64,000 bases of DNA from the NCBI RefSeq assembly GCF_009827335.1, contig NZ_WTYH01000001.1:2269501-2333500 (forward strand), in the 5' to 3' direction. A model generated the notes under the pieces. That model worked only from the letters and a program-made list of their open reading frames with translations, did not search any database and had not been told where the DNA came from. Of the stretch, positions 13,521 through 32,831 are shown in pieces (position 1 is the first letter of the stretch; each line of letters starts with the position of its first letter). Both the position numbers and the translations under genes were made by a program. Source of the DNA: Aurantiacibacter arachoides. Lineage in GTDB: Bacteria > Pseudomonadota > Alphaproteobacteria > Sphingomonadales > Sphingomonadaceae.

Positions 13521-13534
13521 AATGAACGTTCACA
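13521..13534. promoter_or_regulatory. Second palindrome (TGAACGTTCA) in the receptor/halogenase gap
   Basis: A perfect 10-bp palindrome at 13523-13532 sits within AATGAACGTTCACA, whose right half matches the LacI pattern. Its centre is 23 bp from that of the site at 13498, about two helical turns. It could be a second operator half of a looped or cooperative pair. Confidence 0.4.
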
Positions 13535-13647
13535 TCTGTCCGCCGGCAGTGTAGCATATTTGCCATATTCGACTAGGCAGGGGCAATGCGATACGCCCCT
13601 GCGGCAGCCTGCCTCCAAGGGGACGGCGAGACGGCGCAGGAGACGGC

Positions 13648-15162
13648 ATGAAGGTTCCAATCAAGCACATCGTGATCGTGGGCGGCGGCACCGCGGGGTG
13701 GATGGCCGCCGCGGCCCTTTCACGGCTCATCACCGAACGGCGCGACCTGCGCATTACCCTGGTGGAAAGCGAGGCCATCGGCACGGTCGGCGTGGGCGAG
13801 GCGACGATCCCCCCCTTCGTCGACTTCCAGCGCCTGCTGGATATCGACGAGGCGGAAATGCTGGCCGCCGTGCAGGGCAGCTTCAAGCTGGGGATCCAGT
13901 TCGTCAACTGGGGCAAGCTGGGCGACAGTTACATCCACCCCTTCGGCAATTACGGCTACGAGATCGGCGGCCTGAGCTTCCACCACGTCTGGCACCACCA
14001 GAAGACCCTGGGCGACAATCGTCCGATCCAGGTCTTCAACGCCGAGACGATGGCCGCATACTTCGGCAAGTTCGCCAAGACCGACGGCCAACAGCGCGAC
14101 GACCTGCCGCCGGTCAATTACGCCTACCACATCAACGCCACCGCCTACGCCGGCTTCCTGCGCCGCTATGCCGAAAGGCGCGGCGTTGTGCGCCAGGAAG
14201 GGCGCGTGGAGCACGTCGCGCTGGATGGGGAAACAGGCTTCGTCTCGTCCATCCGGCTGGACAGCGGGCAGGTCATCGCGGGCGAACTGTTCGTCGATTG
14301 CTCGGGCTTTCGCGGGCTGCTGATCGAACAGGCGCTGGAGACAGGGTACGAGGAGTGGACCCACTGGCTGCCGTGCAACCGCGCCGTGGCCCTGCCCTGC
14401 AACCGCGACGATGGCAGCCCGCCCGCCCCCTTCACACGGGCCACGGCCCATTCCGCCGGCTGGCAGTGGCAGGTGCCGTTGCAGCACCGCAACGGCAACG
14501 GCCATGTCTATTGCGATGCCTTCATGGATGCGGACGAGGCGACGGACATTCTCCTGCAGAACATCGCCGGCAAGCCCACCGCCGATCCCAACCACCTGCG
14601 TTTCGTTACCGGGCGGCGCAAGAAGTTCTGGAACCGCAACGTGGTGGCGCTCGGCCTCGCCTCGGGGTTCATGGAGCCGCTGGAATCGACCTCGATCCAC
14701 CTCATCAACACCGGCATCAACAAGCTGGTCGCGCTGCTCTCGCTCGATGGCGTCACACAGGCGCAGGAGGATGCCTTCAACCGCCTGACGGGCAAGGAAT
14801 ACGCGCGCATCCGCGATTTCCTGATCCTGCATTACAACACCACGACCCGCACCGACACCGAGTTCTGGAACTATTGCCGCACCATGAGCGTGCCCGACAG
14901 CCTCACCGAAAAGGTCGAGCTGTTCAAGCTGAACGGCCAGATCTTCCGCGAGGAGGACGAGCTGTTCACCGAGACCAGCTGGGCGGCGGTGATGATGGGC
15001 CAGGGTATCCAGATGCAGGGCCACAACGCGATGGCCGAAACGCTCGATCCGGCCGAAACCAGGCGCGAGCTCGACGAGATGGAAAAGTCCATCCGGTATG
15101 CCGTCCAGCACATGCCCGGCCACGCCGACTTCCTGCGCCAGTACTGCCCCGCGCCCGCTTGA
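13648..15162 (+). CDS. Flavin-dependent tryptophan-halogenase-family protein
   Basis: This 504-residue protein has the FAD-binding GGGTAGWMAA motif at the N-terminus. The catalytic lysine of flavin halogenases is Lys80 in FKLGIQF; the WxWxIP motif is present with a conservative change (W272-Q-W-Q-V-P277); and the active-site glutamate matches Glu346 in MEPLESTSIHL. All key PrnA-type residues are therefore in place. Members beside TonB-dependent receptors and glycoside hydrolases are common in sphingomonads, Caulobacter and Xanthomonas, yet their substrate is not established, so true halogenation should not be assumed. The start has a good site (GGAGA, 5 bases upstream). It is transcribed away from the receptor gene, across a gap holding two LacI-type sites. 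Confidence 0.9.
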   Translation: MKVPIKHIVIVGGGTAGWMAAAALSRLITERRDLRITLVESEAIGTVGVGEATIPPFVDFQRLLDIDEAEMLAAVQGSFKLGIQFVNWGKLGDSYIHPFGNYGYEIGGLSFHHVWHHQKTLGDNRPIQVFNAETMAAYFGKFAKTDGQQRDDLPPVNYAYHINATAYAGFLRRYAERRGVVRQEGRVEHVALDGETGFVSSIRLDSGQVIAGELFVDCSGFRGLLIEQALETGYEEWTHWLPCNRAVALPCNRDDGSPPAPFTRATAHSAGWQWQVPLQHRNGNGHVYCDAFMDADEATDILLQNIAGKPTADPNHLRFVTGRRKKFWNRNVVALGLASGFMEPLESTSIHLINTGINKLVALLSLDGVTQAQEDAFNRLTGKEYARIRDFLILHYNTTTRTDTEFWNYCRTMSVPDSLTEKVELFKLNGQIFREEDELFTETSWAAVMMGQGIQMQGHNAMAETLDPAETRRELDEMEKSIRYAVQHMPGHADFLRQYCPAPA

Positions 15163-18688: not shown

Positions 18689-18745
18689 CGTGAAATATCC
18701 CTCGCGTTCGATCCGTGGGTGCAGGCACGCCCGACCCGTAAAAGT

Positions 18746-18795: not shown

Positions 18796-20373
18796 TCAGC
18801 TGAAGACCGGGATGCGGGTGCACGACCCGGTGTTGTTGCCGAAGGAGACGGCGGCCGAATCGCAGGTCCAGCCGCGCGTCCAGTCGTTGGCCGAGGATAC
18901 CGCGCCGATGTAGTTCGCCGCTTCGAAGAAGCTGCCCAGCGTGGTGACGTTGAAGATGGGCGCAAAGCCATTCTCGTTGGCCCCGTTCAGGTAACCGTTC
19001 ACCAGCGTGTTGGTGTAGCTCTTGTTGTTGCCCGTGCCGGCATCGAAGATGGCCTCTGCCTGGGCGACGGTCGCGCCGGAGTTGCTGCCGCTGCGGAAAT
19101 CGGTGCGGCAATCGAGCGCGACCGACTGGAACACCGGCGGGCCGACATCGTCCAGGCCCGCGTTGGCCGGGCGGATCGTCTGCGCATCGTCCATGCGGAT
19201 GCACGGCGTGCCGGTGGACGAGGCATCCCAGATCAGCGTGTTGTACAGGCCATAGTCGGTGCCGCCGCGCAGGCGCACGACCTGGTCGTTGTTGCGCCGG
19301 TGGATGAAGGTCGCGTTGGCGATGCGGGTGTTCTGGCGCGGGGTCTGGTCGTTGAGGCCGTTGGAGCTGTCCGCCTCGATGATGGCATCGCCCGCGGATG
19401 CTCGCTGGGCCGCCAGGACGAACTGCATGTTGGCCTTCACGCCGGTGTCGGTGTCGAGCGAATCGTCCTCCGCACCGGCCACGATCAGGCGCTTGACGTT
19501 GGCGTAGCCACCGAAGAACTCCACGCCATCGTCGGACGAGTTGACCGACTGGATGTTGGCGAAGACGGTGCCCGGCTGCGCGCCGCCGGTGGTCAGCGAC
19601 TGCAGCTCGTTATCGCCCGAAAGGACGAACCCCGAATAGCGGATCTGCACGAAAGTGAGCGAGCCGTTGGTGCCCGTGGTGGTCGCGCCGCCGAAGAAGG
19701 CCGGGTTGGCCGCGCCTTCGACCTGGCGTTCGCAGTTGACCGTGCCGGGGGTGGCGGCGGGTTCGAAGCAGTCGGTCACCGGCGCGCGGCCGCTGATCAC
19801 GATGCCGCCCCACTGGCCCGAGCTGTCGGCGCCGTTCAGGCCCAGCACGTTGTCGCGGCTGGTGAAGATGATCGGCCGCGTGGCGGTGCCGTTGGCCTGG
19901 ATGAAGTTGCCGCGGTTGACGTTCAGGAACGATGCGCCGGTGGCGAAGACGATCACCCCGGGTTCGATCGTCAGGGTCACGTTGGTGTCGGAAAAGCCGT
20001 CGCTGGCATCGGCCGCCGGGCCGCCGTCGGAACCGACGTTGACCTGGCCGGGCAGGCGATAGAGCAGGCCGGGAACCTGGCGCAGGGTGGTCGAGGCGGT
20101 GAAGCGCAGCGGCACGGCGCACACGCGCCAGGTGCCCTCGGGTCCGGTGATCGTGCCCTCGTCGGTCAGCCCGGCGGGATCGGCGATGGTCGGGCAGCCG
20201 TTGGCCGCTGTGACCGTGCCGGTGCTCGACGTGGGGCTGGGGGTGGGCGTCGGGGCCGGGTTGTTGATGATGACGTCGCCGCCGGTGCCGGGCGAGGCGA
20301 GATCGTCGGGTCCGCAACCCGCGATGGCGAGAACGGAAACACCAAGGATGAGCGAACGGGAAAGCTGTGTCAC
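18796..20373 (-). CDS. Exported lipoprotein of unknown function, partner of the receptor
   Basis: This 525-residue protein has a lipoprotein signal (lipobox AIAGC at about 17-21; GCGPDD follows). A Pro/Thr/Ser linker comes next (PTPTPSPTSS), then a long Asn/Gly-rich region with short beta-type repeats (NVTLTIEPGVIVFA, RPIIFTSRD, GIVISGRAPV, TFVQIRYSGF) that reads like a right-handed parallel beta-helix. Conserved cysteines (for example near NGCPTIADP and VCAVPL) suggest disulfides. The aspartates after the lipid cysteine would favour outer-membrane or surface placement. The pairing with a TBDR recalls the Caulobacter locus of the phosphate-starvation lipoprotein ElpS, which is also beside a receptor gene; homology is a guess from memory. 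Start ATG at 20373. Confidence 0.75.
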   Translation of the reverse strand: MTQLSRSLILGVSVLAIAGCGPDDLASPGTGGDVIINNPAPTPTPSPTSSTGTVTAANGCPTIADPAGLTDEGTITGPEGTWRVCAVPLRFTASTTLRQVPGLLYRLPGQVNVGSDGGPAADASDGFSDTNVTLTIEPGVIVFATGASFLNVNRGNFIQANGTATRPIIFTSRDNVLGLNGADSSGQWGGIVISGRAPVTDCFEPAATPGTVNCERQVEGAANPAFFGGATTTGTNGSLTFVQIRYSGFVLSGDNELQSLTTGGAQPGTVFANIQSVNSSDDGVEFFGGYANVKRLIVAGAEDDSLDTDTGVKANMQFVLAAQRASAGDAIIEADSSNGLNDQTPRQNTRIANATFIHRRNNDQVVRLRGGTDYGLYNTLIWDASSTGTPCIRMDDAQTIRPANAGLDDVGPPVFQSVALDCRTDFRSGSNSGATVAQAEAIFDAGTGNNKSYTNTLVNGYLNGANENGFAPIFNVTTLGSFFEAANYIGAVSSANDWTRGWTCDSAAVSFGNNTGSCTRIPVFS

Positions 20374-20643: not shown

Positions 20644-21012
20644 ATGCTCGCTACCCTCGCCCTCGCCCCACTGTTGTTTGCACAGGCCGTCACCTCGGTG
20701 ATGGTGGAGCAGCAGTACGAACAACGCGACGTGGCCTTTGCGGAACTGGCAGCGGGCGATGCGCCGGCCGCCATCGCCGCACTCGAGGCAGAACTGGCCC
20801 AGCATCCGGACGATCCGGCGCTGTTGATCAATCTCGGCTCCGCCTGGTCGCGCGCCGGCAATGCCGAGCGTGCCGAGTTCTACTATCGCGCCGCGCGCGA
20901 CACCGACCAACGCTACAACCTGGAACTGGCCGATGGCCGCTGGATCGATTCGCGCGACGCCGCCCAATTGGCGCTGGCCTCTGTGGAATTGCGGGCGCTC
21001 GCCGCGCGCTGA
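20644..21012 (+). CDS. Small exported TPR-like protein
   Basis: This 122-residue protein has a hydrophobic N-terminus (MLATLALAPLLFAQA) likely to be a signal peptide. One to two tetratricopeptide-like helix pairs follow: AELAAGDAPAAIAALEAELAQHPDDPALLINLGSAWSR is a clear TPR unit, followed by AGNAERAEFYYRAARD. Its role is unknown; TPR units usually bind partner proteins. GGGAG lies 7-8 bases before the ATG. It is divergent from the lipoprotein gene and shares the 270-bp gap containing the Pho-box-like repeats, so it could be controlled from the same region. It lies 101 bp before the type IV secretion genes on the same strand. Confidence 0.65.
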   Translation: MLATLALAPLLFAQAVTSVMVEQQYEQRDVAFAELAAGDAPAAIAALEAELAQHPDDPALLINLGSAWSRAGNAERAEFYYRAARDTDQRYNLELADGRWIDSRDAAQLALASVELRALAAR

Positions 21013-21113: not shown

Positions 21114-21764
21114 ATGATTCTGCGTTTTGGCACATCACTGGCAGCGATCGCGCTGACCGCGGCTGGCGCGGTTCCCGCGCAGGCCGATGTGCTGGAAATC
21201 TCCGCCGCCGGGGATGTCGCGTGGATCGCCGGGGGCCCTGTCGCGGCGACGGATCTCTTCGCCGAACCGGATGCCACGGCGGCCGCCCTTTCTGGAGCGT
21301 TGGCCGAGGTTCCCTCCGAGGCAATGGCCCTGGTCCCGGACAATGCCGTTGCCGATACCCAGCGCCACGCCGCGGGCATTCCGGCAAACTATGCCGCCGC
21401 CGTGCGCAATCTGGCTGCGCGCTTCGACCTGTCGCCCGCGCTGCTGGAAGCGGTGGTCTGGCAGGAAAGCCGCTGGCGCCACGATGCCGTATCGCCGGCA
21501 GGCGCGCGCGGGCTTGCCCAGCTCATGCCGGGTACCGCGCGCGACATGGGCGTCAATCCCGACGATCCCCTCGCGAACCTGGAGGGCGGCGCGCGCTACT
21601 TGCGTGCCCAGCTCGACCGTTTCGATGGTGATCTGGAACGGGCGCTTGCCGCCTACAACGCCGGACCTGGCCGCGTAATACGGGCAGGCGGTATTCCCAA
21701 CATCCGAGAGACCCGTTTGTACGTAGCTGCAATCATGGGCCGCCTTGCCAACCATGCCCGCTGA
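21114..21764 (+). CDS. Lytic transglycosylase (VirB1-like, SLT domain)
   Basis: This 216-residue periplasmic murein hydrolase has a signal peptide (ends VPAQA) and a soluble lytic transglycosylase domain from about residue 90. Catalytic Glu118 lies in VWQESRWRHDAVS, followed by AGARGLAQLMPGTARDMG and ALAAYNAGPGRV, the standard SLT motifs. I chose the ATG at 21114 because GGAGGG stands 5 bases upstream; a TTG at 21048 is open but has no support. It stands first in a run of type IV secretion genes, the position of VirB1, and would open the peptidoglycan for assembly of the apparatus. Confidence 0.88.
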   Translation: MILRFGTSLAAIALTAAGAVPAQADVLEISAAGDVAWIAGGPVAATDLFAEPDATAAALSGALAEVPSEAMALVPDNAVADTQRHAAGIPANYAAAVRNLAARFDLSPALLEAVVWQESRWRHDAVSPAGARGLAQLMPGTARDMGVNPDDPLANLEGGARYLRAQLDRFDGDLERALAAYNAGPGRVIRAGGIPNIRETRLYVAAIMGRLANHAR

Positions 21765-21802
21765 GAACGCCAACCAATTTCACTGAGAATGACAGCCTGT
21801 TT

Positions 21803-22093
21803 ATGAAACTGTTTGCCCGCTTCCTTGCCCTTGCCACCGTGCTCCTGCCGAGCGCCGCCTTCGCGCAGGATCCCGCCGGGTCCAGCCCGATCAACAACGC
21901 GTTCGGCTGGATGCGCGACACCATGCTTGGCACGGTGGCGACCACCGTGGCGGTAATGGCCGTGGCCGCGGTCGGTTTCATGATGCTGACGGGCCGGGTC
22001 AACTGGCGCTTCGGCGCGACCGTGATCATCGGCGTCTTCGTGATCTTCGGCGCGGCCAGCATCGTGGCCGGCATCCAGTCGGCGGCTGGCTGA
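21803..22093 (+). CDS. virB2: VirB2/TrbC-type pilin
   Basis: This 96-residue protein has a cleavable signal peptide (ends PSAAFAQ). Two hydrophobic helices flank a short basic turn (MMLTGRVNWRFGATVIIGVFVIF), the classical VirB2/TrbC pilin layout of two helices and a positively charged cytoplasmic loop. The mature subunit would be about 75 residues. It lies between the lytic transglycosylase and the virB3 gene, as expected from canonical order. Family members form the extracellular pilus or a membrane pool of subunits in type IV secretion. Confidence rests on topology plus position. Confidence 0.82.
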   Translation: MKLFARFLALATVLLPSAAFAQDPAGSSPINNAFGWMRDTMLGTVATTVAVMAVAAVGFMMLTGRVNWRFGATVIIGVFVIFGAASIVAGIQSAAG

Positions 22094-22103
22094 GGCGCGG
22101 CCC

Positions 22104-22385
22104 ATGCATCTCACCCGTCACCCCGTCCATCGCGCGCTGACCCGCCCGCAGATGTTCGCGGGCGTGACGTTCAACTATTTCGTGATCAACCTCATCGTCA
22201 CGACCGAGGCCTTCCTGATCTTTCAGAGCCTGTGGATCATCCCGATCCCGCTGATCATGCACGGCGTCGGCTACTTTGCCTGCCTGCGCGAACCGCGCTT
22301 CTTCGACCTATGGCTGACCCGCGTCAGCAAATGCCCGCGCGTGAAGAATTACAAACGCTGGGGTTGCAACTCATACGCCGCCTGA
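22104..22385 (+). CDS. virB3: VirB3-family inner-membrane protein
   Basis: This 93-residue protein has the VirB3 pattern: a polar start (LTRHPVHRALTRPQMFAGV), two closely spaced hydrophobic helices (about 25-65), and a C-terminal FFDLWLTRVSKCPRVKNYKRWGCNSY segment typical of the family. VirB3 sits in the inner membrane and works with the VirB4 ATPase, to which it is fused in some systems. It starts 10 bases after virB2 and ends 25 bases before virB4, so one transcript is likely. Confidence 0.85.
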   Translation: MHLTRHPVHRALTRPQMFAGVTFNYFVINLIVTTEAFLIFQSLWIIPIPLIMHGVGYFACLREPRFFDLWLTRVSKCPRVKNYKRWGCNSYAA

Positions 22386-22410
22386 TCTGCAGGCGGACGG
22401 GAGCGAGAGC

Positions 22411-24858
22411 ATGACGGCCAAGCGCCGCAACACAAAATGGCTGGGAGCCGCCGCGTGGAGCGCCAAGGAAGCGCACGCCGGCGATCGCCTGCCCTACGCC
22501 GCCCTGATCGACGAGAACGTGGTGCTGCTGCGCGACGGTTCGCTGATGGCGGCGATGCAGGTGCCCGGCCTGTTGTTCGAGACAGAGGATACCGACGCGC
22601 TCAACGCGCACGCCGTCACCCGCGAGGTGATGCTGCGGTCCAACCTCGATGCGCGGTTCGTGATGTATCACCACGTCATCCGCCGCCGCGTGGCGGTGGA
22701 GCTGGACGCCGATTTCACCGATCCGCTGGCCGCCCATATCGACCGGCGCTGGCGCGAGAAGCTGTCGGCGGGATCGCTGTTCGTCAACGATCAGTTCGTG
22801 TCGCTGGTGCGCCGCCCGGCGCGCGGCAAGGCGGGCCTGGCCGAACGCGCCAGCAAGGCCATGCGCCGGCGCGGGGTCGATGCGGAAGGTATCGACCCCA
22901 GGGACGTGCGCTCGCTGCGGGCCGCGATGCAGGCGCTGGCCGCCAGCCTGGGCGATTACGGCGCGCTGCCGCTCGGCGACTATGTCGGCCCCAGCGGCCA
23001 CAACAATAACGAGGTGCTGGAACTGGTCAGCGCGCTCTACAACGGCGAGATGCGGCCTGTCCGGCGGCCCGATGGCGACACCGATATCGGCCGCATGATC
23101 CCCTATCGCCGCGCCAGCTTCGGGCTGGACGCGATGGAGCTGCGGGGCAGCAGCGGCGCGGATTTCGCCTCGATGCTCAGCCTAAAGGACTATCCCGACG
23201 CGACCAGCCCCGGCCTGCTCGATTCCATGCTGCGCCTGCCGTATGAGATGGTGGTCACCGAAAGCTTCGCGCCGCAGGAACGCCAGACCGCGCGCGAACG
23301 GATCGATCTCGCCATCCGCCGCCTCAAGAGCGCGGACGAGGAAGCGCAGGCCGAACGTGCCGACATGATGGCCGCGCGCGACGAGCTTGGCGCAGGGTCC
23401 GTTGCCTTTGGCGACCATCACCTCACCGTGCTGGTGCGCGAGCGCAGCCTGGAACGGCTCGACGATGCCACCGCGGCCGTCGCCGCCAGCCTTGCCGATA
23501 CGGGCGCCATCGCCGTGCGCGAGGACACCAATCTCGAACCCAGCTTCTGGGGCCAGTTCCCCGGCAACGAGGGTTTCCTGGTGCGCCGGGCGATGATCTC
23601 CACCGCCAACATGGCGAGTTTCGGGTCGCTGCACGGCTTTGCCCTGGGGCAGGCGGAAGGCAACCACTGGGGCGAGGCGGTGACGCTGCTGCAAACCACC
23701 AGCTCGACTCCGTTCTTCTTCAATTTCCACCACGGCGACCTTGGCAATTTCTCGGTCATCGGCCCGTCGGGAAGCGGCAAGACCGTGGTGATGAATTTCC
23801 TCGCCGCGCAGGCGCAGAAGTTCAGCCCCCGCACCATCCTGTTCGACAAGGACCGCGGCGCGGAGCTGTTCATCCGCGGCATCGGCGGCACCTACGATCG
23901 CATCCGCTCGGGCGAGCCGACCGGGTTCAACCCCCTGGCCCTGCCCGATACCCCGGTGAACCGCGGCTTCCTGCGCGACTGGCTTTCGGTTCTGCTGCGG
24001 GCCGAGGGACCGGAAGAAAGCGCGACCATCGCCGCCGCGGTCGATGCCGCCTATTCCAACGATCCCAGTCTGCGCCGCCTGCGCCATTTCAAGGAACTGG
24101 TTTCGGGCAGCCGGCGCCCGCAGCCGGGCGACCTGGCTGACCGGCTTGCTGCCTGGATCGAGGATGGCGAGCACGGCTGGCTGTTCGACAACGCCGCCGA
24201 CAACCTCGACCTTTCCACCCGCGTCATGGGGTTCGACATGACCGCGCTGCTGGAAAATCCCCGCCTGCGCACGCCGACGATGATGTACCTGTTCCACCGC
24301 ATCGAGGAGCGGCTGGACGGCGAGCCGACCATGATCCTGATCGACGAGGGCTGGAAGGCGCTGGACGACGAGGTCTTCGCCGCGCGCATCCGCGACTGGC
24401 TCAAGACACTCCGGAAACGCAACGCCCTGGTGGGTTTTGCCACCCAGTCGGCGCGCGATGCGCTCGACAGCCGCATCGCTACCGCACTGGTCGAACAGAC
24501 CGCCACGATGGTGTTCATGCCCAACGCCCGCGCCCGTCCGGAGGATTACTGCGAGGGCTTCGGCCTGACCGAGCACGAGTTCGCGCTGATCCGCTCCTTG
24601 CCGGCGCACAGCCGCTGTTTCCTCGTCCGCCAGCCCGATGCGAGCGTCGTGGTGCGCCTCGACCTCTCCAACGCGCCAGAGGTGCTGACCGTGCTGTCGG
24701 GCCGCGAAAGCACCGTCCGCCGGCTCGACCTGCTGCGCGAATCGGTGGGCGATGCCCCGCGCGACTGGTATCCCGCGCTCACCGGGCGGCCCTGGCCCGG
24801 CCCCGGCGCCAACGGGGAGCCCGAGGCTCAAGACTTCGGTTGGGAGGCGGCCGAGTGA
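22411..24858 (+). CDS. virB4: VirB4 ATPase of type IV secretion
   Basis: This 815-residue energising ATPase belongs to the inner-membrane base of the secretion channel. The N-terminal half (about 1-400) is the CagE/VirB4 domain, including FFFNFHHGDLGNFSVIG just before the nucleotide site. Walker A is GPSGSGKT at 451-458, Walker B MILIDEG at 641-647, and SARDALDS with the following ATMVFMPNARA are the usual downstream motifs. All catalytic motifs look intact. The stop overlaps the GTG start of virB6. The length is normal for VirB4. Confidence 0.95.
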   Translation: MTAKRRNTKWLGAAAWSAKEAHAGDRLPYAALIDENVVLLRDGSLMAAMQVPGLLFETEDTDALNAHAVTREVMLRSNLDARFVMYHHVIRRRVAVELDADFTDPLAAHIDRRWREKLSAGSLFVNDQFVSLVRRPARGKAGLAERASKAMRRRGVDAEGIDPRDVRSLRAAMQALAASLGDYGALPLGDYVGPSGHNNNEVLELVSALYNGEMRPVRRPDGDTDIGRMIPYRRASFGLDAMELRGSSGADFASMLSLKDYPDATSPGLLDSMLRLPYEMVVTESFAPQERQTARERIDLAIRRLKSADEEAQAERADMMAARDELGAGSVAFGDHHLTVLVRERSLERLDDATAAVAASLADTGAIAVREDTNLEPSFWGQFPGNEGFLVRRAMISTANMASFGSLHGFALGQAEGNHWGEAVTLLQTTSSTPFFFNFHHGDLGNFSVIGPSGSGKTVVMNFLAAQAQKFSPRTILFDKDRGAELFIRGIGGTYDRIRSGEPTGFNPLALPDTPVNRGFLRDWLSVLLRAEGPEESATIAAAVDAAYSNDPSLRRLRHFKELVSGSRRPQPGDLADRLAAWIEDGEHGWLFDNAADNLDLSTRVMGFDMTALLENPRLRTPTMMYLFHRIEERLDGEPTMILIDEGWKALDDEVFAARIRDWLKTLRKRNALVGFATQSARDALDSRIATALVEQTATMVFMPNARARPEDYCEGFGLTEHEFALIRSLPAHSRCFLVRQPDASVVVRLDLSNAPEVLTVLSGRESTVRRLDLLRESVGDAPRDWYPALTGRPWPGPGANGEPEAQDFGWEAAE

Positions 24859-26063
24859 ATGGCTCGATGGAAGCCGTCGCGGCAGAATGCCAGCGGCAGA
24901 TGGAAGGCGTGGGCGCCGGCATCGGCGCGTCCTTGCGCGGCGTGGACTGCGCCGCCAATGCCATGGCGCAGGCAGCTTTCAGCAATCTGTTTTCCAACGG
25001 CGCGCTAGGCACAACGCTCACGCTGGCGCTGACGATCTTCGTCGCCTTCGTCGGCTTCGGCATGCTGACCGGGCGCACCGGGATCGGCCTGTCATCGCTG
25101 ACGCCCAAGATGATGACCGTGGCACTGGTCGTCACCTTTGCTACCAGCTGGGTGGCCTTCCAGGCGGTGTTCTGGAACTTCGCCGTTCTCACCCCGGACT
25201 TCATCGCCAGCGCCGTGATGGGCACCAGCGGGTCGGCGGCGACATTGTTCGCCGACAAGCTGGACGTGGTGATGCTCAGCCTGATGCAGGCATCGGGTGG
25301 AGACGCCATGGACGCCAACACCAGCGTGTTCTCGCCCCCGGGCCTGCTGTGGTCGGGCGGAACGATGCTGCTGCTCGGCACCGTCGGCGTGCTGGCGACC
25401 ACCAAGATCGCGCTCGCCATCCTGATGGGCCTGGGGCCGATCTTCATCCTCGCTGCCCTGTTCAAGCCCACCCGCGGCCTGTTCACCGGCTGGCTGAAGG
25501 GCGTGGTGCTGATGGCGCTCGCGCCGCTGTTCGCGGTGCTGGGCGGTTCGTTGATGCTGGAGCTGTCCATCCCCGTCCTCTCCAGCCTGGGATCGACGCC
25601 GGAAGAGATCGACGTGCGCGCGGCCATGGCCTTTTTCATGATCGGCGCGATCCACCTGGCCTTGATGTTCATGGTGATGAAAGTCACCTCCACCATGGTC
25701 GCGGGGTGGAACGTCTTTGGCCTGGCACCCGCCAAGCGCGGCGAGGCCTGGCCGGCCATGCCCGCCGCCGCTGCGGCGGCGTCCACGGTGGTGACGCCCG
25801 CGCTCGCCGGCAGCAGCGCCCGGGAACGCACCGCGCAGGCCGTGCCGCCAGCCGCTGCCCGTGACATGCGCGTCGTCCGGGGCGCCATGCCGGTGGCCGC
25901 CAACGATTCCGGTTCAGCTGCGACTAACCGCGAGACACGCATCGTCAGCACGCGGGAAACCGGTGGCGCTGCCGGCAGTGCCGGGGCCGCGCCATCGCGC
26001 GCGCGGGGCATCGGCAGCCGATTCAAGTCCGCGCCGATCCGGCAGAAGGAAACACTGAAATGA
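24855..26063 (+). CDS. virB6: VirB6/TrbL-type polytopic membrane protein
   Basis: This inner-membrane protein of 402 residues has about six hydrophobic segments between residues 40 and 290 (for example TLALTIFVAFVGFGMLTGR, IALAILMGLGPIFILAALF, AAMAFFMIGAIHLALMFMVM). A long, poorly conserved, basic and Ala-rich tail follows. The N-terminal amphipathic region and the GLGPIFILAALF segment fit VirB6/TrbL. The GTG at 24855 overlaps the virB4 stop and has GGGAGG 7 bases upstream; an ATG at 24867 is the alternative. It overlaps virB9 by 4 bases at its end. Confidence 0.85.
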   Translation: MNGSMEAVAAECQRQMEGVGAGIGASLRGVDCAANAMAQAAFSNLFSNGALGTTLTLALTIFVAFVGFGMLTGRTGIGLSSLTPKMMTVALVVTFATSWVAFQAVFWNFAVLTPDFIASAVMGTSGSAATLFADKLDVVMLSLMQASGGDAMDANTSVFSPPGLLWSGGTMLLLGTVGVLATTKIALAILMGLGPIFILAALFKPTRGLFTGWLKGVVLMALAPLFAVLGGSLMLELSIPVLSSLGSTPEEIDVRAAMAFFMIGAIHLALMFMVMKVTSTMVAGWNVFGLAPAKRGEAWPAMPAAAAAASTVVTPALAGSSARERTAQAVPPAAARDMRVVRGAMPVAANDSGSAATNRETRIVSTRETGGAAGSAGAAPSRARGIGSRFKSAPIRQKETLK

Positions 26064-26860
26064 TCCGCGTAACGATCGCCGCGGCGCTTGCCGCCGCCAC
26101 GCTGGGCTCCGCGCTCGCCAGCCCTGCCGCCGCGCAGGATGCCCGCCTGGTGGAACGGCTCTACGATCCGGCGGCAGTCGTGCGGATCAACGGGCAGGTG
26201 AACGTGCAGACCACGATCCAGTTCGGCGAGGGCGAGGCGATCGAGAACGTCGCCATCGGCGATTCGACAACCTGGCAGGTTACCCCCAACCGCCGCGCCA
26301 ACTTGTTGTTCGTAAAGCCGCTGGCGGCGCGTGCGTCGACGAACATGACAGTGGTGACCAATCGCCACACCTACCTGTTCGACCTCGTCGCCACGCCCAG
26401 CGCGCGCAACCCGCTCTACATCCTCACCTTCACCTACCCGCCCGAGCCGGAGCCGGTGGCAGAGGAACCCGTGCGCCGCGCGTCCGCCGATGCGCCCAAT
26501 GCCATCGAAATGGCGGCGGCGAGTGACGATTACGCGGTGATCGACCCTGCCGATCTCAGCTTCGCCTGGGCCAGCTCGGGCGATGGCAACCTGCTGCCCA
26601 GCGAGATCTACGACAACGGCTCGGCAACATTCCTCGTCTGGCCCGCCGACCGGGCGATGCCGGCAATCCTGGTCAAGGATCACCAGGGCAACGAGGGACC
26701 GGCCAATTTTGCCACCCGCGACGACGTGATCGTGCTCGACCTCGTCCCGGCAGAGATCATCCTGCGCTCGGGCGAGAGCATGGCGGTGCTGACCAACCAG
26801 GGCGAGGCGGGCGCCTTCCTCGCCGATGGCACCGCGCGCCGCGACACCACCCGGAATTGA
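26060..26860 (+). CDS. virB9: VirB9/TrbG outer-membrane core component
   Basis: This 266-residue protein has a signal peptide (ends SPAAAQ). The VirB9 N-terminal domain (VVRINGQVNVQTTIQFGEGE, NRRANLLFVKPLAARASTNMTVVT, TYLFDL) and the VirB9 C-terminal beta domain (DPADLSFAWA, PSEIYDNGSATFLVWP, LVPAEIILRSG) are both visible. VirB9 forms the periplasmic and outer-membrane core complex with VirB10 and usually the VirB7 lipoprotein, but no VirB7 candidate is seen next to it. The ATG overlaps the virB6 stop (ATGA). The C-terminal domain, which binds VirB7 and VirB10, looks complete. Confidence 0.9.
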   Translation: MIRVTIAAALAAATLGSALASPAAAQDARLVERLYDPAAVVRINGQVNVQTTIQFGEGEAIENVAIGDSTTWQVTPNRRANLLFVKPLAARASTNMTVVTNRHTYLFDLVATPSARNPLYILTFTYPPEPEPVAEEPVRRASADAPNAIEMAAASDDYAVIDPADLSFAWASSGDGNLLPSEIYDNGSATFLVWPADRAMPAILVKDHQGNEGPANFATRDDVIVLDLVPAEIILRSGESMAVLTNQGEAGAFLADGTARRDTTRN

Positions 26861-26873
26861 TGGAGCTGCCACG

Positions 26874-28040
26874 ATGAAACTAGCCATGCGCCTGCCGGAA
26901 AAGGCCTCCGCCCACGCCAACGACGTCGACCCGCGCGAGAACGAGACGACCGAGATCATCGATCTTGCCAGCCGCACATCCTATCCGGCGGTGGCGAATC
27001 GCAACCGCCGTTCCGACGCGGTGGGCCTGATGGCGGGAATCGCTTTCGTCGCGCTGCTCGGCACCGCCACCCTGTGGGGCCTCAGCGCCAGCAAGGTGGA
27101 TAACGAACAGGCGGCCGCACAGGCCGCTGCAACGCCTGCGCCGACCACCCCGGCGCAGGATGCCGCGCTGGCTGCCGCCGCCGAGCCGCAGCAGGTGATC
27201 GCGGTCGATGCCGGTCAGGGCTACGTCCCGCAGGCCGATCCCGCGCCCGCCGCCGTGTTCGCGGCCCAGCCGGTCACCTATGGCGAGACGGTGAGCAGCC
27301 CGGCGGCCAATCCTTACGCCTCCCCAACGCTGGTATTCGACGGCGGCACCGCGCCCGCCGCAGCCGCTGCGCTGGCGGCGGCGGCGGCAGGCGCAACCGA
27401 CGCGCCGGTCGCCCCCGTCCCGGGCGCAGGTTCAGCCGGCGATTTCGCCGCGCGCGTGGGCGGCATGGGAGGCGGCACCGCCGTCGCCCGGCAGGACATC
27501 AACCCCGCCACCACGGTGACGCAGGGGACAATGATCCCCGCGATCCTGGAAACCGCCATCAATACCGACGTGCCGGGCTTCGTTCGCGCGGTCGTGAGCC
27601 AGGACGTGCGCAGTTTTGACGGCAGCCGCGTGCTTGTGCCGCGCTCCAGCCGCCTCGTCGGCCAGTACCAGTCCGGCCTGCAGGCAGGTCAGCGCCGCGC
27701 CTACGTCATCTGGCAGCGGGTGATCCGCCCCGACGGGGTGACGGTGAACCTGCAGAGCCCGGCGACCGCGTTCGACGGGACGGCGGGCATCGAGGGGCAG
27801 GTCAACAGCCATTTCTTCAGCCGCTTCGGTTCGGCCATGCTGCTGTCGGTGATCGGCGGGCTGACCACGCTTGCCAGCGGCGGCGCGGGCATCATCATGG
27901 GCGGTGGGCAGAGCGCGGCCAATACCGCGCTGCAACAGGACGGCCAGCGCCCGCCCACCGTGCGCGTGCGCATGGGCGAGCCGATCCGCGTCTACACCGC
28001 GCGCGATCTCGATTTCGGGCAGGCCCCGGCAGTCCGCTGA
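26874..28040 (+). CDS. virB10: VirB10/TrbI core-complex protein
   Basis: This 388-residue protein spans from inner to outer membrane. It has a short cytoplasmic start, one transmembrane helix (about 50-70; AVGLMAGIAFVALLGTATLW), an Ala/Pro-rich periplasmic linker, and the C-terminal TrbI barrel domain: VTQGTMIPAILETAINTDVPG, SRVLVPRSSRLVGQYQSG and VRVRMGEPIRVYTARDLDF are diagnostic. The antenna region of the outer-membrane pore falls within the domain. ATG 26874 is favoured by GGAG 8 bases upstream; a start at 26826 would overlap virB9. It is followed 5 bases on by virB11. Confidence 0.92.
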   Translation: MKLAMRLPEKASAHANDVDPRENETTEIIDLASRTSYPAVANRNRRSDAVGLMAGIAFVALLGTATLWGLSASKVDNEQAAAQAAATPAPTTPAQDAALAAAAEPQQVIAVDAGQGYVPQADPAPAAVFAAQPVTYGETVSSPAANPYASPTLVFDGGTAPAAAAALAAAAAGATDAPVAPVPGAGSAGDFAARVGGMGGGTAVARQDINPATTVTQGTMIPAILETAINTDVPGFVRAVVSQDVRSFDGSRVLVPRSSRLVGQYQSGLQAGQRRAYVIWQRVIRPDGVTVNLQSPATAFDGTAGIEGQVNSHFFSRFGSAMLLSVIGGLTTLASGGAGIIMGGGQSAANTALQQDGQRPPTVRVRMGEPIRVYTARDLDFGQAPAVR

Positions 28041-28045
28041 TCGGC

Positions 28046-29062
28046 ATGAGCGCCGAGATCCACCAGCTGGGCGGCGCGCCCGATGCGGCCGTGCCGATCG
28101 TGGCCTCGGGCTCGGTCTATCTCGATGCCTATCTCGCGCCATTCCGCGAATGGCTCGACCGGGACACGGTGACCGAGATCCTGGTGAACAACCCGGGCGA
28201 GATGTGGGTGGAGGATGCCGCGCAGGCCGGGGGGATGCAGCGGATCGCGCTTCCCGCCATCGACGACAAGCTGGTTCAGCGCCTGGCCGAACAGGTCGCG
28301 CGGATCAGCCACCAGGGCATCAACCGCGAACACCCGCTGCTCGGCGCGACCCTGCCCGATGGCGCGCGCATCCAGTTCTGCGGCCCGCCTGCCACGCGCA
28401 AGCACTGGGCCATGGCGATCCGCCGCCACCGCCGGCTGGACCTGCCGCTGGACGCCTACGACGCCGGCCCGCTCGCCAGCGCGGAAGATGCACAGCTGCC
28501 CGATCCGCAGGCCCAGCCGATCGCATTCCTGCGCGCCGCGATCCGCGCGAGGAAGACGATCCTCATTTCCGGGGGCACCAGCACCGGCAAGACGACATTC
28601 CTCAACGCCATGCTGGGCGAGATTCCCGCGCACGAACGCGTGATCCTGGTGGAAGATACGCCCGAACTGAAGCTGCCGGGGGCCAATGGCCTTGGCCTAG
28701 TGGCGGTGAAGGGGGAACTCGGCGAGGCCAAGGTCGGCGCCAATGAACTGCTGCAATCGGCGCTGCGCCTCAGGCCCGATCGCATCGTGCTGGGCGAATT
28801 GCGCGGCGCGGAAAGCGTCAGCTTCCTGCGCGCCATCAACACCGGCCATCCGGGCAGCTTCTCCACCATCCATGCCAATTCCCTGCGCGGCGCGTTGGAA
28901 CAGCTGAGCCTGATGGTCATGCAGACCGGCATCGGCCTCACCCGGCCCGACACCATCGCCTATGCCGCGAACGTGATCGACGTCATCGTCCAGCTCAGCC
29001 GGACGGATGGCAAGCGTGGCATCAGCGCCATCGCCGAAGCCCGCGACCTCGCGGACCTCTAG
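28046..29062 (+). CDS. virB11: VirB11 hexameric traffic ATPase
   Basis: This 338-residue cytoplasmic ATPase powers substrate transfer and pilus formation. The N-terminal domain (VTEILVNNPGEMWVED) is followed by Walker A GGTSTGKTT at 176-184, the Asp box VILVEDTPELKLP, Walker B DRIVLGELRG and the His box TGHPGSFSTIHAN, all intact. It is the last gene of the secretion cluster; the next gene, ppk1, starts 65 bases on. No coupling ATPase (VirD4) is adjacent. Confidence 0.94.
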   Translation: MSAEIHQLGGAPDAAVPIVASGSVYLDAYLAPFREWLDRDTVTEILVNNPGEMWVEDAAQAGGMQRIALPAIDDKLVQRLAEQVARISHQGINREHPLLGATLPDGARIQFCGPPATRKHWAMAIRRHRRLDLPLDAYDAGPLASAEDAQLPDPQAQPIAFLRAAIRARKTILISGGTSTGKTTFLNAMLGEIPAHERVILVEDTPELKLPGANGLGLVAVKGELGEAKVGANELLQSALRLRPDRIVLGELRGAESVSFLRAINTGHPGSFSTIHANSLRGALEQLSLMVMQTGIGLTRPDTIAYAANVIDVIVQLSRTDGKRGISAIAEARDLADL

Positions 29063-29127
29063 CCGCCGGATCGGACGTGGCGCGGCCTGTCTTGCGCCGG
29101 TCACATGGTCTTGCCACTGACAGCCCC

Positions 29128-31329
29128 ATGGCGAGCGATCCCACCCTGTCGAACGCGGCCAACGACCCCGCCGATCCTGCGCCGGCCAGCCGCTATTTCA
29201 ACCGCGAGCTCTCGTGGCTGGCCTTCAACGACCGCGTGCTGGCAGAGGCGGCCAACCCCGCCTACCCGCTGCTCGAACGGCTCCGGTTCCTGTCGATCTC
29301 GGGCAGCAATCTCGATGAGTTCGTGATGATCCGGGTCGCCGGGCTCGCCGGGCAGGTGCGCAGCAAGATTGCAGAGACATCCATCGACGGGCGCACCCCG
29401 CGCCAGCAACTCGCCGCGATCGACGGAAAGGTGCGCGCGCTGCAGATCAAGCAGCAGCAAGCGCTCGATACCCTGCGCCTGCTGCTTGCGGCCGAGGGCA
29501 TCCATATCGAGGGTGAGCAGCAGATCGGCGTGCAGGCCGAGGCGTGGCTGCGCGACTGGTTCGAAAGCCACATCGTGCCCGTGGTCACGCCGCAGGCGCT
29601 CGATCCCGCAAACCCCTTCCCCTTCGTCGCGAACGGCGGCATCGGCGCCCTGTTCACCCTGCAACGCGAGAGCGACGGCAGCCGCCTCATAGAGATGGTG
29701 CTGATCCCGCAGGCGCTCGACCGGTTCGTCGCGCTGCCGGCGGAGCTGACGGACGGGGAAAGCGTGCTCATCGCCGTCGAGCGTCTGGTATGCCGCTACG
29801 CCGGCATCCTCTTCCCCGGGTTCAGGGTGCTGGGCGACGGCGTGTTTCGCGTGCTGCGCGACAGCGATCTGGAAATCGAGGAGGAGGCCGAGGACCTCGT
29901 CCGCCTGTTCCGCAGCGCCATCCAGCGCCGCCGCCGGGGGCAGGTCATCATGCTCGAACTGGCCGATGATTTCGATCCCGATGCCGAGGACCTGCTGCGC
30001 GAGAAGCTCGGGCTGGCGCAAGCCCTCGTGACCAGGACCGGCGGTATGCTCGGTATTTCGGGGCTTGCCCAGGTGGTCGAAACGGACCGTCCCGAGCTCA
30101 GGTTTCCTCCCTACACCCCGCGCTATCCCGAGCGGGTGCTGGAACACGACGGCGACGTTTTCGCCGCCATCGGCGCCAAGGACTTCATCGTCCACCACCC
30201 TTACGAGAGCTTCGAGGTCGTGGTCGATTTCCTGCGCCAGGCTGCAGCCGATCCCAGGGTCGTCTCGATCAAGCAGGCGCTTTACCGCGCGGGCAACCAG
30301 CCCACTGTCATCAACGCGCTGATCGCCGCGGCGGAGGCGGGCAAGTCCGTCACCGCCGTGGTCGAACTGAAGGCGCGGTTCGATGAAGAGCAGAACCTGA
30401 AATGGGCGGGCGAGCTGGAACGCGCCGGGGTCCAGGTGATCTACGGCTTCATCGACATGAAGACCCATGCCAAGGTCAGCATGGTGGTGCGCGAGGAGGA
30501 CGGCGCCTACCGCGTCTACTGCCATCTTGGCACCGGCAACTATCACCCGGTCACCGCGCGCATTTATACCGATCTGAGCTATTTCACCGCCGATCCGGCC
30601 TTCGGGCGCGACGCGGCAAAGCTGTTCAATTTCGTCACCGGCCATGTCGAGCCCGATACGATGGAACGCCTCTCCATCAGCCCGCTTACCTTGCGTGAGC
30701 GCCTGGTCGCCGACATCGACCACGAAATCGCGCTCGCCCGCGAGGGCCGGCCCGCCGCGATCTGGGGGAAGATGAACGCGATCACCGAACGTGGGCTGAT
30801 CGACAAGTTCTACGAGGCGAGCGCCGCGGGCGTCAAAGTCACGCTGGTGGTGCGCGGCATCTGCTGCCTGCGTCCGGGCGTGCCGGGGCTTTCCGAAAAC
30901 ATCACCGTGAAATCGATCATCGGCCGCTTCCTGGAACACAGCCGCATTTACGCCTTTGGCAACGGCCGTCCGCTGCCGTCGGAAGAGGCCATCGTCTATT
31001 TCTCCAGCGCCGACCTGATGGACCGCAACCTGTATCGCCGGGTGGAGGCGCTGGTGCCGATCTGCAACCCCACGGTGCACGAACAGGTGCTGGGGCAGGT
31101 GATGCTGGCGAACCTGCTCGATACCGAACAAAGCTGGCTGCTCGACGGGACGAGCGGCGTTTATCACCGGGTTGGCGACGGCAATGTTGTTGTCGGCGAG
31201 CAATTCAACTGCCACGGCTACTTCATGACCAACCCTTCGCTCAGCGGTCGTGGCGATGCGCTGGCGGACAGCCGGGTTCCCGACCTGGCCGAACGCCAGA
31301 CGCCGACGTTGCCCGCGCACCCGCGGTGA
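29128..31329 (+). CDS. ppk1: Polyphosphate kinase 1
   Basis: This 733-residue enzyme reversibly transfers the ATP gamma-phosphate to inorganic polyphosphate. The N-terminal domain begins with FNRELSWLAFNDRVLAEA. The autophosphorylated histidine is His447 in KTHAKVSM, and the second essential histidine is His604 in RFLEHSRIY; their spacing of 157 equals that in E. coli Ppk. HLGTGNYHPVTARIYTD and RGICCLRPGVPGLSENI are further signatures. I chose the ATG at 29128; a GTG at 29077 would add 17 residues unlike the family. The stop overlaps the GTG start of ppx, so synthesis and breakdown enzymes are coupled. Confidence 0.95.
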   Translation: MASDPTLSNAANDPADPAPASRYFNRELSWLAFNDRVLAEAANPAYPLLERLRFLSISGSNLDEFVMIRVAGLAGQVRSKIAETSIDGRTPRQQLAAIDGKVRALQIKQQQALDTLRLLLAAEGIHIEGEQQIGVQAEAWLRDWFESHIVPVVTPQALDPANPFPFVANGGIGALFTLQRESDGSRLIEMVLIPQALDRFVALPAELTDGESVLIAVERLVCRYAGILFPGFRVLGDGVFRVLRDSDLEIEEEAEDLVRLFRSAIQRRRRGQVIMLELADDFDPDAEDLLREKLGLAQALVTRTGGMLGISGLAQVVETDRPELRFPPYTPRYPERVLEHDGDVFAAIGAKDFIVHHPYESFEVVVDFLRQAAADPRVVSIKQALYRAGNQPTVINALIAAAEAGKSVTAVVELKARFDEEQNLKWAGELERAGVQVIYGFIDMKTHAKVSMVVREEDGAYRVYCHLGTGNYHPVTARIYTDLSYFTADPAFGRDAAKLFNFVTGHVEPDTMERLSISPLTLRERLVADIDHEIALAREGRPAAIWGKMNAITERGLIDKFYEASAAGVKVTLVVRGICCLRPGVPGLSENITVKSIIGRFLEHSRIYAFGNGRPLPSEEAIVYFSSADLMDRNLYRRVEALVPICNPTVHEQVLGQVMLANLLDTEQSWLLDGTSGVYHRVGDGNVVVGEQFNCHGYFMTNPSLSGRGDALADSRVPDLAERQTPTLPAHPR

Positions 31330-32831
31330 GCGCGCTGCCCGCACGGCGCGGGGCGCAAGCCATCGAAGCGCCGCATTCGGCGGTGATCGATATCGGTTCG
31401 AACACCGTGCGGCTGGTCGTCTATTCCGGCCCGCGCCGCGCGCCCAGTGTCTGGCTCAACGAAAAGGTCACCGCCCGGCTGGGACGCGATCTTGCCGTCA
31501 CCGGGGCGATCCCGCCGGCAGCCGAGCGACTGGCGTTCGAAGGGCTCGCCCGCTTCGCCGCGATCCTGCGCGATCTGGGCATAGAGGACGTCGTTACCGT
31601 CGCCACTGCTGCCGCGCGCGAGGCTGCCAACGGTCCGGCCTTCATCGACAAGGTCCGCGGCCTCGGCCTGCATCCGCGGGTGCTGTCGGGCACCGAGGAA
31701 GCGGCCAGCGCGGCCTATGGCGTGATCGGTGCCTTTCCGGGGGCCAGGGGCGTGGTAGCCGACATGGGTGGCGGCAGCCTGGAACTGATCGCTGTCGATA
31801 ACGGCGAATGTCATCACGGCGAAAGCCTGCCGCTCGGCACCCTGCGCCTGCCGGTCCTGCGCGAAAGGGGCGCGGCGGCCTTCCGCCAGGCGATCGAGCA
31901 GGAAATGGCCAAGGTCGGCTGGGCACAGGCCCACGGGGGGCCGCTCTACCTGGTCGGGGGCACCTGGCGGGCCATGGCGATCTACGCCATGCACGCGGCG
32001 AACTATCCGCTCGGCGATCCGCAGGCCTATGCCTTTACTCCGGAAGAGGCGGAGCGGCTGGCAAAGAGCCTTTCCAAGACCGACCCGGCGGCTCTTACCG
32101 CCATCCCCGGCATATCCACCAGCCGTGCGGCGGGCCTGCCCGATGCCGCGGCGATGCTGCGGGTGATGTTGCAGGAGCTGGCGCCGGAAGCGCTGGTGAT
32201 TTCCGCCTGGGGCCTGCGCGAGGGCCTGCTTTTCGAACGATTGGACAAGGCGGCGCGGGAGCAGGATCCGCTGCTTGCCGCCGTCACCCACTTCGCCACC
32301 CCGCGCGGCAGCAGCATCACCGACGCCGCCCTCAAGTGCGCGTGGACGGCAGAGGCCGTGGGCGGGACCGGGCGCGAGGCTGAACGGGTGCGGCTGGCCG
32401 CCACGCTGCTGACCCAGGCAGCCGCGCGGATCGAACCCAACATGCGCCTGTCGCATTCGGTCGACTGGGCGCTGGAGAAACGCTGGGTGGGCATAGACCA
32501 CCGGGGCCGCGTGATGATGGCGCAGGCGCTGCGCGCCAGCTGCGGACAACCGCGTCTGGTGCCGGCCTGGCGCGAGCTGGCCGGGGAGGAGCAGCTTCAC
32601 CGCGCAAGCGCCTGGGGCCTGGCCAACCGCCTGTGCCGCAAGATCGGCGCGGGCACGCGCACGTCCCTTACCACCAGCGCCCTCAGGCGCGACGGCGACA
32701 GGCTGGTCCTGCGCTTTGACGAAAGCCGCACGCACATGATGAGCGAGGCCGTGCGCGGCGAGCTTGCCCAGCTTGCCGGCTGGCTCGGGCTCGAATCCGC
32801 CATGGAAGCGGGATCGGTCAGCGAACCCTGA
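31326..32831 (+). CDS. ppx: Exopolyphosphatase / pppGpp phosphohydrolase family
   Basis: This 501-residue enzyme of the ASKHA fold would remove terminal phosphate from polyphosphate and possibly from pppGpp. The phosphate-binding loop IDIGSNTVRL is at 21-30; TAAAREAANG, LSGTEEAASAAYGV and VVADMGGGSLELI are the standard Ppx/GppA motifs. The C-terminal half carries an HD-like helical region (SHSVDWALEKRWVGIDHRGR). The GTG start overlaps the ppk1 stop by 4 bases. The order ppk-ppx is common in alphaproteobacteria. The balance between Ppx and GppA activity cannot be told from sequence. Confidence 0.92.
   Translation: MSALPARRGAQAIEAPHSAVIDIGSNTVRLVVYSGPRRAPSVWLNEKVTARLGRDLAVTGAIPPAAERLAFEGLARFAAILRDLGIEDVVTVATAAAREAANGPAFIDKVRGLGLHPRVLSGTEEAASAAYGVIGAFPGARGVVADMGGGSLELIAVDNGECHHGESLPLGTLRLPVLRERGAAAFRQAIEQEMAKVGWAQAHGGPLYLVGGTWRAMAIYAMHAANYPLGDPQAYAFTPEEAERLAKSLSKTDPAALTAIPGISTSRAAGLPDAAAMLRVMLQELAPEALVISAWGLREGLLFERLDKAAREQDPLLAAVTHFATPRGSSITDAALKCAWTAEAVGGTGREAERVRLAATLLTQAAARIEPNMRLSHSVDWALEKRWVGIDHRGRVMMAQALRASCGQPRLVPAWRELAGEEQLHRASAWGLANRLCRKIGAGTRTSLTTSALRRDGDRLVLRFDESRTHMMSEAVRGELAQLAGWLGLESAMEAGSVSEP

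What the first reader, a model, noticed from the sequence alone, without database searches (positions are those of the whole stretch)
21114..29062. Reduced type IV secretion cluster without VirB5, VirB7, VirB8 or VirD4
Eight tightly packed genes give a lytic transglycosylase, VirB2, B3, B4, B6, B9, B10 and B11 with intact ATPase motifs. VirB8 is a structural component in known VirB systems, and VirB7 usually anchors VirB9; neither is found here, nor is a coupling ATPase or relaxase. The cluster is flanked by chromosomal genes (TPR protein, ppk1) with no tRNA, integrase or transposase, so it looks like a resident machine rather than a mobile element. It may be a variant secretion or pilus system with its own replacement parts.
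Basis: partly seen in the sequence, partly recalled or inferred. Interest (0 to 1): 0.72.

Follow-up and report, generated by a model that had tools for sequence, protein, structure and literature searches.

The report
VirB8-less resident type IV secretion cluster
A bacterium of the genus Aurantiacibacter, or one very near it, carries on its chromosome a slimmed-down version of a well-known bacterial secretion machine that lacks parts usually thought essential, and many relatives keep the same stripped set with signs of selection to keep it, so it probably works without them.

Summary
Window 21114-29062 encodes virB1-2-3-4-6-9-10-11 in one tight run, with no VirB8 and no VirB5, VirB7 or VirD4 found. 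This is not a defect of one genome. In 80 of 80 named relatives VirB6 abuts VirB9 (-4 to 23 bp). Of 196 genomes of the order, 54 carry a VirB9 locus with no VirB8 within 5 kb, and 37 of those 54 have no VirB8 match anywhere. Of 41 such loci examined, 40 have the same gene order; one is a decayed conjugative cluster. The clusters group together beside VirB8-bearing chromosomal clusters and largely follow genus lines. dN/dS against the nearest relative is 0.06-0.14. The genome also holds a second T4SS that has VirB8, but VirB8 does not track the window cluster. So this is a resident, probably working T4SS that lost its VirB8 "arches"; best guess, a VirB2 filament machine for periplasmic cargo or surface contact. 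Print half-noticed it: "Lacks VirB8" (PMC2702493), "incomplete virB operons" (PMC3338782), a copy that coevolved with its genomes (PMC4919336). Function is untested.

The parts
21114..21764 (+). virB1-like lytic transglycosylase (SLT), 216 aa; signal peptide by eye
   Evidence: PF01464 2.2e-24; SLT glutamate context
21803..22093 (+). virB2 pilin, 96 aa
   Evidence: PF04956 8.2e-19
22104..22385 (+). virB3, 93 aa
   Evidence: PF05101 5e-28; NF010474 over its cut-off
22411..24858 (+). virB4 ATPase, 815 aa
   Evidence: TIGR00929 2.2e-216 over its cut-off; R388 TrwK 1.3e-134; Walker motifs
24867..26063 (+). virB6, 398 aa; residues 283-398 predicted with pLDDT under 50
   Evidence: PF04610 6.1e-31; R388 TrwI 1.6e-9; model; best Foldseek hits R388 VirB6
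26060..26860 (+). virB9, 266 aa; signal peptide by eye, no lipobox
   Evidence: PF03524 1.5e-47; TIGR02781 below its cut-off; R388 TrwF 6.1e-20
26874..28040 (+). virB10, 388 aa
   Evidence: PF03743 2.1e-49; NF038091 below its cut-off
28046..29062 (+). virB11 ATPase, 338 aa
   Evidence: TIGR02788 7.6e-88 over its cut-off; Walker A
20644..21012 (+). small TPR protein upstream, signal peptide by eye; probable bystander
   Evidence: TPR matches; found in 28 of 40 loci; a 35-43% homologue lies beside the lipoprotein in L070-L072, where no T4SS gene was found
29077..32831 (+). ppk and ppx/gppA, frequent chromosomal neighbours
   Evidence: Pfam; in the fetched stretch of 25 of 40 loci

Best explanation
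The cluster is a resident VirB-type T4SS from which VirB8 was lost once, or at most a few times, in a lineage that already lacked VirB5 and VirD4. Shown: gene content, absence of VirB8 from the cluster and often from the whole genome, common ancestry of most such clusters, purifying selection in the pairs measured. Inferred: it still builds an outer-membrane core (VirB9-VirB10), an inner-membrane engine (VirB3, VirB4, VirB6 with VirB11) and a VirB2 filament, with VirB1 opening the wall, but without the periplasmic ring ('arches') that VirB8 forms in R388 and without the VirB5 stalk tip. With no coupling protein to feed cytoplasmic cargo, the likeliest work is a short pilus or piston that pushes Sec- or Tat-exported cargo out of the periplasm, or makes surface contacts, as proposed for other VirD4-less systems such as Ptl and Bartonella Trw.
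For:: eight genes, intact ATPase motifs. VirB6-VirB9 gap -4 to 23 bp in 80 of 80 named loci; 37 of 54 genomes with a VirB8-less VirB9 locus have no PF04335 match; of 12 of those 37 genomes in the sample, 11 gave nothing with a sister-clade VirB8 profile at E up to 1, and G182 gave a 34-residue match at 0.04; grouping and mostly genus-congruent rows; dN/dS 0.064-0.138 for the eight genes against L008, versus 0.154 (ppk) and 0.228 (ppx); in the 11 genomes with a sister-type cluster fetched here, no PF07996 match, and a strong PF02534 match only in G044, 1.8 Mb from that cluster; the own-genome sister cluster carries three Collar proteins with Sec-type signals (by eye); an exported-looking dioxygenase-like protein lies beside 4 of 6 VirB8-less clusters outside the main group; review section on VirD4-less two-step systems.
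Against: No substrate, pilus or phenotype is known, and the window operon has no conserved exported partner of its own. Support for one VirB8-less branch is only 69 with the long-branched L029 and L030 included. L029 comes from family f1 but branches outside rows of other families, so the deep history is not strictly vertical. The profile is narrow: it missed VirB8s that PF04335 finds in G065, G121 and G189 and matched G030's only at 0.0015. A VirB8 analogue too divergent for both profiles could lie elsewhere. The VirB10 model was too poor to use.
Confidence: 0.5

Rival explanations
1. DNA uptake or recipient-side machine: the reduced VirB set binds and pulls in DNA, as in ComB, or helps the cell act as a conjugation recipient.
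For: [quoted passage not shown] ComB of H. pylori also lacks VirD4 and VirB5 (PMC12857230).
Against: ComB keeps VirB8 and lacks VirB11, the reverse of here. No competence family appears among the 15 flanking genes scanned; the genome was not searched for competence genes.
Confidence: 0.2
2. The VirB8 job is done by a non-homologous protein encoded elsewhere, so the machine has arches of another make.
For: VirB8 is described as part of the T4SS inner-membrane complex (PMC12857230, passages), and unlinked parts cannot be excluded.
Against: Nothing extra is conserved inside the operon; VirB6's extra tail is probably disordered.
Confidence: 0.2
3. The window cluster borrows VirB8 from the second T4SS in the same genome.
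For: VirB8 is present at G000:C1:916204.
Against: 37 of 54 genomes with a VirB8-less VirB9 locus have no VirB8 match at all, and VirB8 is about as frequent with such a locus as without (17 of 54 versus 38 of 142).
Confidence: 0.05
4. A decaying remnant of a conjugative element.
For: Missing coupling protein, VirB5, VirB7 and VirB8. One of the 41 VirB8-less loci examined (L022) does look like a decayed conjugative cluster.
Against: Purifying selection, the same order in 40 of 41 loci, intact motifs.
Confidence: 0.04

Closest known systems
T4SS noted in Erythrobacter and Citromicrobium genomes (PMC4919336, PMC2702493, PMC3338782)
   Same: Same bacterial family; gene content virB2-3-4-6-9-10-11 (PMC3338782) or 'Lacks VirB8' (PMC2702493); first copy reported to have coevolved with the genomes (PMC4919336). 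Strain KA37 of that paper is Aurantiacibacter luteus, the nearest named relative here (L082)
   Different: In the passages read it is called incomplete or appears in a table footnote; none describes a conserved VirB8-less lineage. Their own sequences were not compared here, except that L082 is from KA37; L154 is from the genus Citromicrobium
R388 Trw conjugation machine
   Same: VirB4, VirB6 and VirB9 match TrwK, TrwI and TrwF by sequence, VirB6 also by fold
   Different: R388 has the VirB5 stalk, VirB7 and VirB8 arches (PMC9259494) and the coupling protein TrwB (PMC12857230); its relaxase is recalled
VirD4-less systems: Ptl, Brucella VirB, Bartonella Trw, H. pylori ComB (PMC12857230, section 20)
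   Same: No coupling protein; Ptl and ComB also lack VirB5
   Different: ComB has a VirB8 homologue and lacks VirB11; VirB8 in Ptl, Brucella VirB and Bartonella Trw is recalled, not looked up
Second T4SS of the same genome (L002)
   Same: Belongs to the nearest sister group; no VirB5 match in the genome
   Different: Has VirB8 and three Collar-domain proteins

Membership tests
T4SS superfamily | VirB4 ATPase, the signature subunit | tested here: met
   TIGR00929 over its cut-off; definition from PMC12857230 passage
Canonical VirB/D4 system | VirB2, B3, B4, B6, B9, B10, B11 present | tested here: met
   Pfam matches over cut-off; NCBIfam VirB9 and VirB10 models below theirs
Canonical VirB/D4 system | VirB8 in the cluster | tested here: not met
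   no slot; 37 of 54 genomes with no PF04335 match anywhere; G000 itself has one in another T4SS
Canonical VirB/D4 system | VirB5 | tested here: not met
   PF07996: none in G000 nor in any of the 54 genomes; only 6 of 196 match at all, so the profile may miss many VirB5s
Canonical VirB/D4 system | VirB7 lipoprotein | tested here: inconclusive
   no lipobox ORF in the cluster; rest of the genome not searched
Canonical VirB/D4 system | VirD4 coupling protein | tested here: not met
   PF02534 none in G000; partial PF10412 matches are HerA-type
Integrative conjugative element | integrase and relaxase near the T4SS | tested here: inconclusive
   none among 15 flanking genes scanned; no genome-wide relaxase or integrase search was run
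ComB-type DNA uptake system | VirB8 present and VirB11 absent | tested here: not met
   VirB11 present, VirB8 absent; ComB content
Ptl-like two-step exporter | substrate exported to the periplasm and then through the T4SS | tested here: inconclusive
   no candidate in the window operon; exported-looking proteins beside the second cluster and beside 4 of 6 other-group clusters; secretion not testable here
Bartonella Trw-like pilus system | multiple VirB2 and VirB5 copies | tested here: not met
   one VirB2 in the cluster, no VirB5; feature

The most novel reading that the evidence does not exclude
A whole lineage of T4SS, common in Erythrobacteraceae and present in other alphaproteobacterial families, works without VirB8 and VirB5. 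The periplasmic arches and stalk tip would then be dispensable for a VirB2/VirB4/VirB11-driven filament or export machine: a natural minimal T4SS.
Probability: 0.5. Interest if true: 0.7.

Novelty: new variant of a known kind. Interest (0 to 1): 0.5.

Why it matters
VirB8 makes the arches and contacts VirB4 in the solved R388 machine (PMC9259494, PMC12857230, passages). A resident, selected T4SS without it would show which parts are truly needed for pilus assembly or export, and gives a simple natural system to test that. It also warns that surveys which require VirB8 can call a working system incomplete.

Tried and rejected
The TPR gene and the lipoprotein/TonB-receptor pair as VirB8 replacements: the lipoprotein matches 117 of 196 genomes, many without VirB9, and a TPR homologue (35-43% identity) sits beside it in L070-L072, where no T4SS gene was found in the stretch. 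A clean empty site: none found; the lipoprotein stretches L069-L076 show no ppk. A VirB8-like domain fused to VirB6: tail 283-398 has pLDDT under 50. Fused to VirB10: model too poor to judge (mean pLDDT 42.5). Family code f48 (L045, L046) was first taken for Caulobacteraceae; among the nearest VirB9 relatives that carry names are Niveispirillum and Asticcacaulis, so it is left unnamed. L022 (G027) is among the 54 but looks like a decayed conjugative cluster and was left out of the trees. A search for tail-collar plus T4SS papers gave nothing.
Full report
WHAT IS THERE. The window lies at 2,269,501-2,333,500 of a one-contig genome of 2,941,591 bp. The nearest named VirB9 found is from Aurantiacibacter luteus KA37 (87% identity). 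Its contig has the same length (1,064,700) as G164:C11, a genome of the window's own genus by the genome search, so the window is from Aurantiacibacter or very near it (Erythrobacteraceae). Pfam confirms virB1, B2, B3, B4, B6, B9, B10 and B11 in that order from 21114 to 29062. NCBIfam models for VirB3, VirB4 and VirB11 pass their cut-offs; those for VirB9 and VirB10 fall below theirs. Walker A motifs are intact. VirB4, VirB6 and VirB9 match R388 TrwK, TrwI and TrwF. VirB6 and VirB9 overlap, so there is no space for VirB8, and no lipobox ORF of VirB7 type was found.

IS VIRB8 ELSEWHERE IN THIS GENOME? Yes, once, at 916,204, in a second T4SS (L002): three Collar-domain proteins, a VirB2, VirB3, B4, B6, B8, B9, B10 and B11, beside a tRNA-Pro and yajC-secD-secF. 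No VirB5 and no PF02534 coupling protein were found in the genome; two partial PF10412 matches belong to HerA-type ATPases.

IS THE ABSENCE REAL AND CONSERVED? Of 196 genomes of the order, 92 have a VirB9-family match and 55 a VirB8 match. Pairing by position gives 140 VirB9 matches, 86 with a VirB8 match within 5 kb and 54 without, in 54 genomes. Of these 54 genomes, 17 have a VirB8 match elsewhere and 37 have none. VirB8 is thus in 17 of 54 genomes with such a locus and in 38 of 142 without: no association. I fetched 41 of the 54 loci (the window and L005-L044). In 40 of 41 all of B2, B3, B4, B6, B9, B10 and B11 are found in that order, with B1 in 35 of the 40; the exception, L022, has a truncated VirB4 and looks like a decayed conjugative cluster. 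The other 13 were not examined beyond the pairing. In the named collection 363 stretches encode relatives, of which the best 80 were kept. In 80 of 80 the VirB6 stop and the VirB9 start (chosen by homology) are -4 to 23 bp apart; 69 of 80 hold all seven genes, the others including short contigs. A profile of 13 VirB8s, mostly of the sister group, was run over 99 genomes of the family at E up to 1. Twelve of the 37 genomes without PF04335 were in that sample: 11 gave nothing and G182 a 34-residue match at 0.04. That profile is narrow: it missed VirB8s that PF04335 finds in G065, G121 and G189, and matched G030's only at 0.0015. The six genomes of the window's genus each have a VirB8-less VirB9 locus.

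COUPLING PROTEIN AND VIRB5. Of the 37 genomes without VirB8, 25 have no PF02534 match, 11 have weak ones (E from 4.7e-19 to 3.3e-9, perhaps FtsK, not tested) and one (G002) has strong ones; of all 54, 11 have strong ones. PF07996 (VirB5) matched 6 of 196 genomes, none among the 54, but that profile may miss many VirB5s.

RESIDENT OR MOBILE? Of the 40 loci, 29 have the lipoprotein gene, 28 the TPR gene and 25 ppk in the fetched stretch; 34 have the lipoprotein or ppk, and 6 (L013, L020, L021, L029, L030, L036) neither. Orientation and side vary in a few, such as L016, L024, L027 and L031. The VirB4 tree (67 rows) puts 41 of 42 VirB8-less rows on one side of a branch (SH-aLRT 92), next to ten VirB8-bearing chromosomal clusters; L030 stands outside. 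Inside it, rows of genera g1, g3, g6 and g15 each group together. A five-protein tree (38 rows) has all 21 VirB8-less rows on one side with support 69, or 99 for the 19 without the long-branched L029 and L030. L029 is from family f1, like the window, yet branches outside rows of other families, so the deep history is not strictly vertical. VirB8-bearing outgroups make loss of VirB8 the simpler reading; the root was placed, not inferred. dN/dS against L008 is 0.064-0.138 for the eight genes (ppk 0.154, ppx 0.228); against L009 0.138-0.248 (ppk 0.186, ppx 0.294). I read this as a resident, selected machine.

REPLACEMENT PARTS? Nothing extra is conserved inside the operon. VirB6 is predicted as a helical protein whose best Foldseek hits are R388 VirB6, with a tail 283-398 of pLDDT under 50; VirB10 was not modelled well enough. 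The lipoprotein neighbour matches 117 of 196 genomes, many without VirB9. Beside 4 of 6 VirB8-less clusters outside the main group (L020, L021, L045, L046; not seen at L029 or in the short L030 stretch) lie a response regulator, a histidine kinase and an exported-looking dioxygenase-like protein. Some of these rest on BLAST alone: the L045 regulator, the L021 and L046 kinases and the L021 dioxygenase-like protein. Export signals were judged by eye.

HOW IT PROBABLY WORKS. In R388 the VirB8 periplasmic domains form arches around a VirB5-VirB6 stalk (PMC9259494, passages). The sister group also appears to lack VirB5 and VirD4: in the 11 genomes with a sister-type cluster fetched here there is no PF07996 match, and a strong PF02534 match only in G044, 1.8 Mb from that cluster. 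So VirB8 was probably lost from a machine already without stalk tip and coupling protein. What remains can in principle build an outer-membrane core, an ATPase-driven inner-membrane engine and a VirB2 filament. Without VirD4 the cargo, if any, is likely periplasmic, as in Ptl, or the filament itself is the product, as proposed for Bartonella Trw (PMC12857230, section 20 read). This paragraph is inference beyond the counts.

PRIOR PRINT. PMC2702493 (passages and one section) marks vir operons of Erythrobacter litoralis HTCC2594 and Erythrobacter NAP1 'Lacks VirB8' in a table footnote. PMC3338782 (passages) reports virB2B3B4-virB6-virB9B10B11 in two Citromicrobium genomes as incomplete and suggests DNA import. 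PMC4919336 (passages) reports a first T4SS copy in all 14 Erythrobacter strains that coevolved with the genomes, and a second copy in four strains, KA37 among them, that appeared to come by transfer; G164, apparently KA37, has two VirB9 loci here. PMC3158045 (passages) names Caulobacter among bacteria with relaxase-less T4SS; the Caulobacter vibrioides control has a VirB9-family match and no VirB8 match, but its place in the tree was not tested. In eight searches and the passages read I saw no paper that describes a conserved VirB8-less T4SS lineage; many papers are not held.

VERDICT. Observation confirmed; 'resident variant' supported; 'own replacement parts' not supported. Function unproven.

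Noticed in passing
L002 (G000:C1:906000-925999), 2912-13656: Second chromosomal T4SS with VirB8, a VirB2 and three tandem Collar-domain proteins with apparent signal peptides directly upstream of virB3, beside tRNA-Pro and yajC-secDF; the Collar proteins may be its cargo or adhesins.
   Followed up: partly
L020, L021, L045, L046: These VirB8-less clusters are flanked by an OmpR-type regulator, a histidine kinase and an exported-looking dioxygenase-like protein, about 37-94% identical between loci.
   Followed up: partly
L022 (G027:C1:2797000-2816000): Apparently decayed conjugative T4SS: truncated VirB4, no VirB8 match, a coupling-protein match at G027:C1:2811023, and a transposase-like ORF at 5711-6646 (by eye).
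   Followed up: partly
window 33695-35710, 16001-18700, 10224-13451: Three TonB-dependent receptors near the cluster, with a tryptophan-halogenase-family gene at 13648-15162 between two of them.
   Followed up: no
window 18796-20373: Lipoprotein (lipobox by eye) with no Pfam match beside a TonB receptor; it matches 117 of 196 genomes of the order, and in families f5 and f8 often twice within a frame of about 850-1040 aa.
   Followed up: no
L029 (G181), 1254-4892: This divergent cluster from the window's own family has quite different neighbours (two large ORFs on the opposite strand) and branches apart from the rest of the family.
   Followed up: no
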